Shown here piece after piece: positions 2,343 to 60,680 of a stretch of 64,000 nt of DNA; the stretch's first letter is position 1; every line of letters starts with the position of its first letter. The notes under the pieces are model-generated. The model saw only the letters and a program-made list of their open reading frames with translations, was not told the origin of the DNA and ran no database searches. The position numbers were made by a program, and so were the translations under genes. This DNA comes from Candidatus Gastranaerophilales bacterium (GTDB taxonomy: Bacteria > Cyanobacteriota > Vampirovibrionia > Gastranaerophilales > Gastranaerophilaceae): assembly GCA_944325735.1 (NCBI GenBank), contig CALVBI010000001.1:186001-250000 (forward strand), read 5' to 3'.

Positions 2343-2438
2343 TGAAACATTAAGTAGAAGAGAGGGTAAAAAACGGAGGCAAAGCCTCTGACTAAAAAAA
2401 TAACAAGTAACACAAAAATTGATAAAGAGGGTAAAAAG

Positions 2439-5046: not shown

Positions 5047-5064
5047 TTAAATCAATTAGAAAAT

Positions 5065-5141
5065 AGCTGGATTGCTTCACAGTCGTTCGCAATGACAAAT
5101 TCTGCAGTCATTCTGAGGGCTTTGCCCGAAAGAATCCAGCT
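5065..5141. repeat. Dispersed palindromic repeat R1, copy A (complete)
   Basis: A 77-bp element bounded by perfect 9-bp inverted ends (AGCTGGATT ... AATCCAGCT). It has two arms: arm 1 runs from GCTGGATTGCTTC to CGCAATGAC, and arm 2 from GTCATTCTGAGGGC to GCCCGAAAGAATCCAGC. The arms meet at an inner inverted repeat (AATGAC / GTCATT), and arm 2 itself has a GGGC/GCCC hairpin. No coding capacity. It sits between the GNAT gene and the 3' end of holB, where it could also act as a bidirectional RNA hairpin. Confidence 0.85.
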
Positions 5142-6035: not shown

Positions 6036-6088
6036 TTGAGATTTCCTTGTTTAAATTTATATTTTTAATTTTATTAATAATATAATTG

Positions 6089-6164
6089 GCTGGATTGCTT
6101 CACATTCGTTCGCAATGACAAAACATTTAGTCATTCTGAGGGCTTATGCCCGAAAGAATCCAGC
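6089..6164. repeat. Dispersed palindromic repeat R1, copy B (complete)
   Basis: Same two-arm architecture as copy A, about 76 bp, with ends GCTGGATT and AATCCAGC, inner AATGAC / GTCATT, and GGGCTTATGCCC hairpin in arm 2. The few differences from copy A fall in the arm loops and keep the palindromes intact. It fills the gap between holA and holB. Confidence 0.85.
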
Positions 6165-54482: not shown

Positions 54483-55781
54483 TTATAAAACAAAAGTCCC
54501 TGAAGAAAAAATAACTTCATCTTTCGTAAACTTATACTCAACAGATTTATCAGTTTTGCATAAAGTCAATCGGACTTTCATATCAGGCTTAATTATTGAT
54601 GAAAACTTAACTTTTTTAACCTTTTGCGGAACAAAATCAAGATGAAAAACATCTTTGATAAATTCTTTTGCAAAAAATAATTGAACAACACCCGGTAAAA
54701 TAGGCATTTGAGGGAAATGCCCTTCAAAGAAGTTGCTGTTTTTAGGAAAAATCAAATCCAAATAAGCATTATCGCCATTAATATTAAAGTCAACAACATA
54801 AGGATACGTCACATTAGTATTAAAAATTTCCTTAATTCTTGCTAAATCAGTTTTCCCTCTTTCATTTACGGGCAAATCATACAAAAATCTCCATTTCTTT
54901 GGCAGCACTCTTTCATATTTCGCCATTGCGAGCGTATGCGAAGCAATCCAGCTATTTTTAATCTTCTTTACTAACTCAAGTTTTCCGTTTTCTTCTAAAA
55001 ATTTACGGCCTTTTTCGTTCAATACAACTGCTGCACACAATTTATCATCAAGCTTTAAGCAATATGATTTTTCAATAAATTCATCAGAATTTAAAATATT
55101 TTCTATCTCATTTAAAGAAATACGTTTCTCTTGAATTTTAACAATCCTGTCTTTACGACCTTTTACCCTAAAACCATCATCAAAAAATTCAAGTTCGTCA
55201 CTCAATTCCAATTCATCTTCATCAAAATACGGTGATGAAATTTTCCCGTCATAGTAATGGACATTTTCAAAAAAACGTAAATTATCTTTAGCAGACTGCC
55301 TGTATGCAATTACTCCAGCCTCTGTGCTTCCGTAAATTTCTGTCACAGCCTCTGAAATTCCTTGCAAATAGTCAAACAATTCATCATTTAAAGGAGCTCC
55401 AGCAGAAAAAATCATCTTTGGCTTACGTTTGAATTTGAAATTATATTTTGCAAGCTTTTCCAAAAAAGACGGTGTCGACACAAACACATAATTCTCGTAA
55501 TCTTTAATATCTTCAGGATACAAAACTCTTTCACTGTCAACAACACAGCCTAAAACTTTAGGCAGCATAACCGTAAAAGTAGTGCCATACATATAATCAG
55601 GATTTACTGTTGATACAAATACAGTATCATCAGAAAAATTAAACAATTTTGCTAAATCCTGCCCTTCTTTCAAAACGCATTCATAGCTTTTTTCTATAAT
55701 TTTCGGCTCGCCTGTGGAACCTGATGTATTAAAAATAAACGTTTTTTTACCCTCTTCTTTGATTATCTTATAATTTGTCAT
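54483..55781 (-). CDS. Acyl-AMP ligase fused to hot-dog dehydratase (ApeH-ApeI fusion), N-terminally short ligase
   Basis: 432 residues. Residues 1-325 are an ANL-type adenylating enzyme: P-loop NTSGSTGEPK (18-27), EIYGSTEAG (148-156), GRKDRIVKI (208-216) and the final LPVNERGKTD with Lys310. Residues about 330-432 are a FabZ/ApeI-type dehydratase with FFEGHFPQMPILPGV (351-365, catalytic His355). It should activate the aryl starter and dehydrate intermediates. The ligase starts only 17 residues before its P-loop, where relatives have roughly 90 or more. Residues 277-287 are translated from a dispersed repeat, and the first codons lie in a 64-bp tandem repeat. Confidence 0.85.
   Translation of the reverse strand: MTNYKIIKEEGKKTFIFNTSGSTGEPKIIEKSYECVLKEGQDLAKLFNFSDDTVFVSTVNPDYMYGTTFTVMLPKVLGCVVDSERVLYPEDIKDYENYVFVSTPSFLEKLAKYNFKFKRKPKMIFSAGAPLNDELFDYLQGISEAVTEIYGSTEAGVIAYRQSAKDNLRFFENVHYYDGKISSPYFDEDELELSDELEFFDDGFRVKGRKDRIVKIQEKRISLNEIENILNSDEFIEKSYCLKLDDKLCAAVVLNEKGRKFLEENGKLELVKKIKNSWIASHTLAMAKYERVLPKKWRFLYDLPVNERGKTDLARIKEIFNTNVTYPYVVDFNINGDNAYLDLIFPKNSNFFEGHFPQMPILPGVVQLFFAKEFIKDVFHLDFVPQKVKKVKFSSIIKPDMKVRLTLCKTDKSVEYKFTKDEVIFSSGTFVL
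54923..54952. repeat. R1 repeat arm 1 embedded in the ligase coding sequence
   Basis: CCATTGCGAGCG TAT GCGAAGCAATCCAGC is arm 1 of R1 (compare GTCATTGCGAGG ... GAAGCAATCCAGC in copy C). On the coding strand it reads in frame as SWIASHTLAMA, next to the conserved Lys-Tyr-Glu-Arg stretch before the last ligase motif. Confidence 0.75.
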
Positions 55782-55945
55782 ATCCCCAGTCAGTCGCTGT
55801 GCTCCCTTTTTTACCCTCTTCGTTGATTATCTTATAATTTGTCATATCCCAGTCAGTCGCTGTGCTCCCTTTTTTTACCCTGTTCGCTTATTGTCTTATA
55901 ATTTCCTATATCTCTGTCAGTCGCTATGCTCCCCTTTTTGCCCTC
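55743..55945. repeat. Tandem 64-bp repeat over the apeG-ligase gene junction
   Basis: Landmarks such as TTATAATTT recur at 55768, 55832 and 55896, a 64-base period. On the coding strand each unit holds the end of the membrane-protein gene (GGGAGCACAGCGACTGA), the seven-base gap CTGGGAT, a start codon and the first codons of the ligase (ATGACAAATTATAAGATAAT), then GAGGGTAAAAAA. The first copy has ATG changed to ATA, the second keeps ATG, the third is the real start. Confidence 0.88.
55768..55845 (-). other. Possible overlapping upstream mini-ORF (25 codons)
   Basis: The middle repeat copy provides ATG at 55845 with the same GGGAT context as the real ligase start. It reads MTNYKIINEEGKKGSTATDW and ends at a TAA at 55768, overlapping the ligase start at 55781 in another frame. 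It could lower or couple ligase translation. No homology is expected. Confidence 0.35.
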
Positions 55946-56381
55946 TGTCATATTTTGCTCTCAAAATAATTCTTACAATATATTCTACCCCGAACATCAA
56001 ACCTAGGGCAATATATGAAATACAAGCGTTATACAAGGTCCAAATTTTCGGCGACATAAAAACTGTTGCAAAAGAAATTGACAAATTTATGAATAAAAAA
56101 ACACACCATACATAAGTAAGTTTTCTTGTATAATTTCTGGAGAATTCTGACAATTCACCGTCCATTTTTTTTGCAATTTTTTGTATTACTGTCTCTTTGC
56201 AAAAAAGCGATGAGAAAAATACACAAAAAATAAAACTGTTCACAATGACAGGGTAAAATTTTAAAACATACACTTTGCTAAAATGAAAAAGGCAAACAAT
56301 AAACAAAGTTCCGACAAACGGCAATAAAGGTTTGATTTTCTTTATATAACCCATTTGCCCGCCTGACATCTTGCCTTCCAA
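55917..56381 (-). CDS. Four-helix membrane protein of the aryl-polyene cluster (COG4648/ApeG-like)
   Basis: 154 residues with four membrane helices (about 19-33, 35-55, 88-105, 113-137). KPLLPFVGTLFIVCLFHFSKVY (shortened here: LPFVGTLFIVCLF) and CVFFSSLFCKETVIQKIAKKM followed by TRKLTYVWCVFLFINLSISF match COG4648-type proteins seen in APE clusters, whose role is unknown. It ends in the hydrophilic tail DRGQKGEHSD, which is part of the tandem repeat. Nine bases follow the ACP gene. Confidence 0.72.
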   Translation of the reverse strand: MEGKMSGGQMGYIKKIKPLLPFVGTLFIVCLFHFSKVYVLKFYPVIVNSFIFCVFFSSLFCKETVIQKIAKKMDGELSEFSRNYTRKLTYVWCVFLFINLSISFATVFMSPKIWTLYNACISYIALGLMFGVEYIVRIILRAKYDRGQKGEHSD

Positions 56382-59882: not shown

Positions 59883-59921
59883 AAATTTTAAAAAGTTTTA
59901 TAAAAAGGATAGGTTAGCGAA

Positions 59922-60680
59922 GTGACTGAAAAAGATTTAAAAAATTCTGCGGAAATTGATCCAAAGGGCAAAAAAAAAGTATTAGTAACAGGTTCAAGCA
60001 GAGGTATAGGAAAAGAAATAGCACTATATCTAGCTAAAAACGGTTATGATATTGATGTTCATTACGCTCACAACAAAGAAAAAGCACAAGAAACAGCTGA
60101 CGAAATCAAAGCTCTTGGACGTGAAGCACAAATTTTAAAATTTGATATTAAAAACAGAGAAGAATGCGCATCAGTTTTAGCTGACAAACTTTATTACGGC
60201 ATCGTATTAAATGCAGGTATTGCAAAAGATAACGTTTTCCCGACTCTTGAAGGTGATGAATGGGACGATGTAATTAACACAAATCTTACAGGCTTTTACA
60301 ATGTCTTAAAACCTCTTGTAATGCCTATGATTTCAAACAGAATTAAAGGAAGAATTATTACATTATCATCAATATCAGGACTTTGCGGAAACCGCGGTCA
60401 GGTAAATTATTCCGCATCAAAAGCAGGTATAATCGGAGCTACAAAAGCACTCTCGCTTGAACTTGCAAAACGAGGAATTACTGTGAATTGTATAGCCCCA
60501 GGGGTTATAGAAACCGATATGATAAAAGATGTCCCTGTAGATGAAATCAAAAAATTAATACCTATGAAAAGACTAGGACAAGCTCGTGAAGTCGCAAGCC
60601 TTGCAAATTATCTAATGAGTGAAGACGCTTCATACATAACCGGTCAAGTAATTTCCGTAAACGGAGGTATGTATTTATGA
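59922..60680 (+). CDS. 3-ketoacyl-ACP reductase (ApeQ/FabG-like)
   Basis: 252 residues, NAD(P)H-dependent SDR. TGSSRGIGKEIA (23-34) is the cofactor loop, NAG in VLNAGIAKD, and the catalytic Ser-Tyr-Lys is in LSSISGLCGNRGQVNYSASK (about 147-166). The start is GTG with AAAAGGATAGG about 12 bases upstream; the first 18 residues are a polar extension relative to other FabG. Reduces the ketone before dehydration. Overlaps the next KS gene by four bases. Confidence 0.9.
   Translation: MTEKDLKNSAEIDPKGKKKVLVTGSSRGIGKEIALYLAKNGYDIDVHYAHNKEKAQETADEIKALGREAQILKFDIKNREECASVLADKLYYGIVLNAGIAKDNVFPTLEGDEWDDVINTNLTGFYNVLKPLVMPMISNRIKGRIITLSSISGLCGNRGQVNYSASKAGIIGATKALSLELAKRGITVNCIAPGVIETDMIKDVPVDEIKKLIPMKRLGQAREVASLANYLMSEDASYITGQVISVNGGMYL

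What the first reader, a model, noticed from the sequence alone, without database searches (positions are those of the whole stretch)
55743..55945. Gene junction triplicated in tandem: stop codon, spacer and start codon repeated every 64 bp
The unit contains the tail of the ApeG-like gene, a seven-base gap and the first ~13 codons of the ligase. Removing two units from the 135-bp gap restores a seven-base spacing like that of neighbouring genes. The shared GAGGGtAAAAA block at both unit ends explains the duplication by slippage or unequal recombination. One copy keeps an ATG and opens a 25-codon ORF overlapping the ligase start. Copy number may vary between strains and tune ligase translation.
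Basis: seen in the sequence. Interest (0 to 1): 0.7.

Follow-up and report, generated by a model that had tools for sequence, protein, structure and literature searches.

The report
Mobile mini-repeat invading gene start sites
The triple repeat is not a copied gene junction but a tandemly amplified copy of an apparently undescribed ~52-bp hairpin element that, in one genus of gut bacteria (Candidatus Gastranaerophilales), has spread to dozens of ribosome-binding sites and, in frame, into conserved enzyme genes.

Summary
In detail: three units of 63/64/64 bp at 55755-55945 (- strand), each opening with GAGGGTAAAAA, plus a fourth copy of that block. The unit is a dispersed, mobile-looking element: an 11-bp SD-like repeat, a hairpin (GGAGGC..GCCTCT or GGGAGC..GCGACT) and ~30 A/T-rich bases. 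A covariance model finds 294 copies in 26 of 33 congeneric genomes (8 in this genome, 5 of them in this window) and almost none outside the genus. Fourteen congeners have an empty ligase junction; the nearest relative has one unit. About 79% of sampled arrays end within a few nt of a start codon, always in sense; lpxA (14 species empty, 15 filled) shows insertion into the native Shine-Dalgarno. Others lie in frame (63 nt) inside ispD, rdgB, priA, carbonic anhydrase and hydrogenase genes. In ispD the target GAGGTTATAAA is duplicated. At the ligase the element displaced the native start codon and supplies the new one. Copy number then varies (0-5 units). It works like Rickettsia palindromic elements but lacks their size and terminal inverted repeats. 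The mobilising enzyme and any regulatory effect are unknown.

The parts
55883..55945 (-). Unit 1 (63 bp), oldest/most diverged unit; left repeat mutated to GAGGGCAAAAA, so the upstream gene's stop (GGG TAA in G015) reads CAA and the gene runs on by 8 codons
   Evidence: 80% identical to the other units (51/64)
55819..55882 (-). Unit 2 (64 bp); left repeat CAGGGTAAAAA; its ATG at 55845-55843 opens a 25-codon ORF ending at 55768
   Evidence: 61/65 identical to unit 3
55755..55818 (-). Unit 3 (64 bp), carries the present ligase start codon (55781-55779); hairpin GGGAGC-ACA-GCGACT at 55806-55792
   Evidence: 63/64 identical to the single unit of G015
55744..55754 (-). Terminal direct repeat GAGGGTAAAAA, read as codons of the ligase (EGKK)
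55949..55951 (-). Native ligase start codon (ATGACAGA...), now disconnected from the ligase frame
   Evidence: ortholog junctions
54483..55781 (-). AMP-binding ligase with ApeI-like C-terminal domain (aryl-polyene-type cluster); first ~13 codons derive from the element
55917..56381 (-). Upstream small membrane-protein gene (ApeG-like position between two acyl carrier proteins and the ligase); no Pfam or NCBIfam match
2362..2437 (+). Single copy (65-bp unit) between promoter and lpxA ATG (2439); repeats at 2362-2372 and 2427-2437
59905..59974 (+). Decayed copy overlapping the GTG start and N-terminus of fabG-like gene (59922)
   Evidence: 38.2 bits, E 0.0012 genome-wide

Best explanation
The triplication is a tandem array of a short, non-autonomous, mobile palindromic element. 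One unit inserted at the start of the ligase gene in an ancestor shared with G015, at a GA(GGG)TAAAAA-like sequence overlapping the native start, and pushed the native start codon out of frame (64 nt). An ATG carried by the element became the new ligase start. Further units were gained or lost by recombination between the 11-bp repeats, or a second element entered an existing repeat. In general the element enters SD-like GAGGNTANAAA sequences, mostly real ribosome-binding sites, and duplicates about 11 bp; the SD copy left beside the ATG keeps the gene translatable. Inside genes only frame-keeping copies are seen. Shown: the family, empty and filled sites, target duplication in ispD, sense bias before starts, frame keeping, hairpin covariation. 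Inferred: a transposition-like DNA process with an enzyme acting in trans, and the route by which tandem copies arise.
For: Dispersed family: 294 model matches in 26/33 genus genomes at E<=0.01, none in 7; 8 in own genome at that level; 17/117 genomes of the order, 3 of 37 genera. Empty versus filled: ligase 14 empty, G015 one unit, here three; lpxA 14 empty / 15 filled among 29 species, promoter TACTATAAT kept and the native GAGAGGATAAAAAgATG split; ispD 26 of 29 lack it (e.g. AAAGAGGTTATAAAATATAC), with 1, 2 and 3 units in G040, G022, G007, flanked by GAGGTTATAAA on both sides. Left and right repeats of an array agree more than shuffled pairs (1.90 versus 2.46 +- 0.07 differences, 0/2000). 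Context: 80 of 101 arrays end right before a start codon, in sense, in front of about 35 different genes; random positions 2.2%. In genes: 8/8 repeat spacings are multiples of 3, in leaders 40/28/25; ispD, rdgB (3 species), priA, carbonic anhydrase, hydrogenase. Hairpin: AG/CT in 35 and GA/GA in 30 copies, 2 others among those scored.
Against: No transposase could be tied to it: Y1 transposases occur in only 6 of 33 genomes, one of which has no element. No terminal inverted repeats. At the ligase itself the closest empty sites (GATAAAAA, GAAAATAAA) lack the full GAGGGTAAAAA, so target duplication is not proven at this locus; in the carbonic anhydrase and one rdgB site the two repeats differ. 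The context sample was drawn from the better-scoring hits and includes orthologous sites. All genomes are draft or metagenome assemblies.
Confidence: 0.87

Rival explanations
1. Slippage or unequal recombination simply triplicated the native gene junction.
For: Tandem units bounded by an 11-bp direct repeat; units 2 and 3 nearly identical; fits the later amplification step.
Against: Fourteen congeners lack anything like the unit; the same unit sits at unrelated loci; unit 1 (80% identical) is more diverged than the G000-G015 flanks (96%).
Confidence: 0.06
2. The unit is a conserved cis-regulatory leader RNA (riboswitch-like or protein-binding), multiplied for dosage, not a mobile element.
For: 80 of 101 arrays lie between promoter and start codon in sense; hairpin covariation.
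Against: Present/absent polymorphism between sister species at the same gene, in-frame copies inside enzymes, one antisense copy in a gene (L076), no common pathway among host genes, no Rfam match.
Confidence: 0.05
3. The element spreads through RNA (reverse-transcribed leader or mRNA-directed insertion), which would explain the sense orientation at Shine-Dalgarno sites.
For: Only sense copies before start codons; hairpins; some arrays begin with 5'-truncated units.
Against: An antisense, in-frame copy in a TupA-like gene and a directional DNA target explain orientation equally well; no reverse transcriptase was sought.
Confidence: 0.1
4. Assembly or chimera artefact.
For: Several arrays end exactly at contig ends (L068, L082, L085, L212), as tandem repeats break short-read assemblies.
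Against: Same units recovered in independent assemblies and inside long contigs; own window is inside a 740-kb contig.
Confidence: 0.02

Closest known systems
Rickettsia palindromic elements (RPE)
   Same: Short palindromic element, dispersed, found between genes and in frame inside conserved enzyme genes (PMC2229807, PMC10969869).
   Different: RPE are 105-146 bp with ~12-bp terminal inverted repeats and no established target duplication (PMC2229807); here ~52 bp, no terminal inverted repeats, ~11-bp duplication, strong preference for Shine-Dalgarno sites, tandem arrays, different phylum.
Bacterial MITEs (ERIC/RU-1, RUP, Correia/NEMIS)
   Same: Small, non-autonomous, often transcribed with neighbouring genes, can fuse to genes.
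   Different: No terminal inverted repeats or TA ends, much shorter, almost exclusively just before start codons in sense.
YPAL/RU-2 of Yersinia
   Same: Internal rather than terminal inverted repeats, target duplications, empty/filled sites known (PMC2229807).
   Different: 168 bp, not A+T-rich, duplications of 3-26 bp at dyad-symmetry targets, not RBS.
REP/BIME with RAYT (IS200/IS605-like Y1) transposases
   Same: Small hairpin units, often clustered.
   Different: REPs are extragenic without a duplicated target; no Y1 enzyme follows this element.
PARCEL repeats
   Same: Palindromic DNA units that are read as tandem in-frame peptide repeats (PMC2996958).
   Different: 25-residue amphipathic repeats in membrane proteins; here 21 residues in unrelated enzymes, mainly non-coding leaders.

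Membership tests
Rickettsia palindromic elements | In-frame insertion into conserved protein genes at several loci | tested here: met
   ispD, rdgB, priA, carbonic anhydrase, hydrogenase
Rickettsia palindromic elements | 105-146 bp with ~12-bp terminal inverted repeats | tested here: not met
   ~52 bp between repeats; ends CGGAGG.../...GACGAA are not complementary
Rickettsia palindromic elements | Sequence relationship to the named RPE families | not tested
   RPE sequences were not fetched; occurrence essentially confined to one genus of Gastranaerophilales
MITE | Terminal inverted repeats matching a transposase | tested here: not met
   no candidate enzyme found
MITE | Target-site duplication of fixed length | tested here: inconclusive
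   ~11 bp, clear in ispD and by left-right agreement, imperfect at the ligase, carbonic anhydrase and one rdgB site
MITE | Empty and filled orthologous sites | tested here: met
   ligase, lpxA, ispD, rdgB
REP/RAYT | Co-occurring Y1 (PF01797) transposase | tested here: not met
   6 of 33 genomes, not following the element
Known structured RNA (Rfam 15) | Covariance-model match | tested here: not met
   10 loci scanned, only one chance-level 21-bit hit below gathering score

The most novel reading that the evidence does not exclude
A mobile element specialised for translation-initiation sites: it recognises a Shine-Dalgarno plus A-rich spacer, duplicates it so that the gene keeps its RBS, can donate a start codon and a new N-terminus, and has a frame-neutral 63-nt unit for the cases where it lands inside a gene, moved by a machinery not yet known.
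Probability: 0.4. Interest if true: 0.8.

Novelty: new variant of a known kind. Interest (0 to 1): 0.64.

Why it matters
Mobile DNA that survives inside essential protein genes has been a long-standing curiosity known mainly from Rickettsia. Here a second, unrelated lineage shows it with many closely related species carrying empty, single and multiple copies at the same sites, so insertion, expansion and effect can be followed step by step. The preference for ribosome-binding sites would be an unusual 'safe harbour' strategy: the target duplication leaves the gene with a working Shine-Dalgarno. It also shows a concrete route by which a gene gets a new start codon and N-terminus, and warns that annotated starts and leaders in these genomes are often element sequence.

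Tried and rejected
Junction duplication as origin: rejected by 14 empty ligase junctions. Y1/RAYT mobiliser: present in 6 of 33 genomes only, and in one without elements. Known structured RNA: no Rfam match. Phage carriage: two exact hairpin patterns found nothing in viral contigs. A second helix in the A/T-rich part: 67% of cells paired, not clearly supported, so not claimed. RNAalifold with no imposed structure found only 4 pairs because half the copies have tandem G-A/A-G in the middle of the stem. Element as a protein-coding repeat by origin: leader copies are open in the coding frame only slightly more often than shuffled ones (20/43 versus 31%). An AlphaFold model of the ispD product with three units has low confidence overall; the insert (residues 30-91) has pLDDT below 50 while most of the core folds, which is compatible with a disordered loop but proves nothing. 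Literature searches for such an element in Gastranaerophilales/Melainabacteria found none.

Full report
Setting. The window lies in a 740-kb contig of a 1.94-Mb genome. The best named relatives of the ligase locus are Candidatus Gastranaerophilales metagenome genomes. The genes around the finding are an aryl-polyene-type cluster: two acyl carrier proteins, a small membrane protein without a family match, an AMP-binding ligase with an ApeI-like C-terminal domain, a methyltransferase, an RND-type transporter, ketosynthases and a fabG.

Observation. The array is real as described: units of 63, 64 and 64 bp on the - strand (55945-55755) plus a fourth GAGGGTAAAAA (55754-55744).

The unit is a family. 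A plain similarity search of the own genome already hit a second place, 2362-2437 of this window, in front of lpxA. Relatives showed the same unit at many other places. 25 units were aligned (runs of A in a few of them were shortened by hand) and a 74-position covariance model built with one 6-bp stem. At E<=0.01 it finds 294 matches in 26 of 33 genomes of the genus and none in the other 7; 8 in this genome: three in the ligase array, lpxA, fabG, flgC, one on contig 3, and priA. In 117 genomes of the order, matches occur in 13 genomes of this genus and in 4 others of the same family, each with one to three.

Anatomy. Repeat RAGGGTAAAAA; 0-5 bases; hairpin; about 30 A/T-rich bases; repeat again. 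The hairpin stem is either GGAGGC/GCCTCT or GGGAGC/GCGACT: the inner two pairs are A-T,G-C in 35 copies and G-A,A-G (tandem GA mismatches, which are stable in hairpins; general knowledge) in 30, with 2 others among those scored. Rarer arms such as GGCAC/GTGCC and GGAGGT/ACCTCT keep pairing. Longer hairpins (72-79, 109-121 nt units) exist.

Empty sites. Ligase: 14 congeners have no unit; the ligase ATG follows or overlaps the end of the upstream gene (G018 GCAAAATATGACAGATAAAAAAATTTTTATTTTT; G004, G005, G007, G020 similar); G015 has exactly one unit, this genome three. lpxA: the promoter TTTGTACTATAATTG is kept in nearly all 29 species; 14 have a simple leader such as GAGAGGATAAAAAGATG (G042) and 15 have one to five units within the Shine-Dalgarno. 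ispD: 26 of 29 species have the uninterrupted KEVIKYT-type sequence; G040, G022 and G007 have one, two and three 63-nt units, every boundary being GAGGTTATAAA, the variant of this target rather than the family consensus. That is the clearest target-site duplication. rdgB: insertions at the same codon region in G019, G042 and G011, empty in others. Across arrays the left and right repeats resemble each other more than shuffled pairs do.

Where copies lie. Of 101 arrays sampled, 80 end within a few bases of a start codon (most 0-5 nt) in sense orientation, before roughly 35 different genes (lpxA, flagellar genes, ssb, rdgB, deoB, leuD and others named here from their N-terminal sequence only); a random position does so 2.2% of the time (one array counted by the script as leader, L215, is really inside a hydrogenase gene and is counted here as coding). 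About eleven lie in frame inside genes, and in all eight measurable cases the repeat spacing is a multiple of three, against 40 of 93 in leaders. One copy in G042 is antisense but in frame within a TupA-like gene, so orientation is not absolute. Several of the remaining arrays are cut by contig ends.

What happened at the ligase. From the native ATG (55951) the frame passes unit 1 and is lost in unit 2; in G015 it is lost in its single 64-nt unit. The only usable in-frame ATG before the conserved TSGSTG motif is inside the gene-proximal unit (55781). So the element supplies the start codon and about 13 codons of the protein. Related units in G004 do the same for the acyltransferase of the same cluster (MENNKIIAADGVKWYEVKEQ) and sit before the methyltransferase in G004 and G042. 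Unit 1 is only 80% identical to units 2 and 3, while the flanks of G000 and G015 are 96% identical; either the common ancestor had two different units and G015 lost one, or this lineage received a second insertion. Units 2 and 3 (61/65) fit recent duplication.

Mechanism. Best supported: a non-autonomous DNA element that enters SD-like sequences with an ~11-bp duplication, followed by changes in copy number between direct repeats. Transposition itself, the enzyme and the present activity are inferred. Y1 transposases do not follow the element. Effects on expression are untested.

Known relatives. RPEs of Rickettsia are the nearest in behaviour (PMC2229807, PMC10969869) but two defining traits, size and terminal inverted repeats, are not met, so it is filed as a new variant of small palindromic mobile elements rather than as an RPE. 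No description in this lineage was found in the held literature, which is not a complete search.

Noticed in passing
window 5061-5122 and 6084-6145: Two copies (87% identical) of another dispersed REP-like repeat (GGATTGCTTCACA.TCGTTCGCAATGACA ... GTCATTCTGAGGGCTT); a similar REP-like stretch (GTCATTCTGAGG...CTCAGAATGAC) lies in the lpxA leader of G045.
   Followed up: no
window 59905-59974: Decayed copy of the element overlaps the GTG start and first codons of the fabG-like gene, so its annotated N-terminus is probably element-derived.
   Followed up: partly
L149 (own genome C1:176877-176947): priA carries an in-frame copy (YGSAATDRSIGNNEIVGAGDEKG) in its C-terminal part, where the E. coli-type protein has a shorter segment.
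   Followed up: partly
L096 5447-5520 and 6567-6704; L181 805-878: In G004 and G042 related units sit at other junctions of the same polyene cluster; in G004 one gives the acyltransferase its start codon.
   Followed up: partly
L101, L206, L214: Long variants (109-121 nt) whose hairpin loop is expanded; might point to a larger progenitor.
   Followed up: no
L066, L071, L086 upstream of rdgB: A different GC-rich palindromic repeat (ctcccTC..GGGGaaggattaagg) directly abuts the element arrays.
   Followed up: no
L068, L082, L085, L212: Arrays stop at contig ends, so true unit numbers are probably higher than assembled.
   Followed up: no
L027/L006 (G010 ligase start): G010 has a 21-nt longer ligase start (ATGACAGAGGATAGAATAATTAGTACAGAAGGTAAAAAAACT) that could be a remnant of a short unit or chance.
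   Followed up: no
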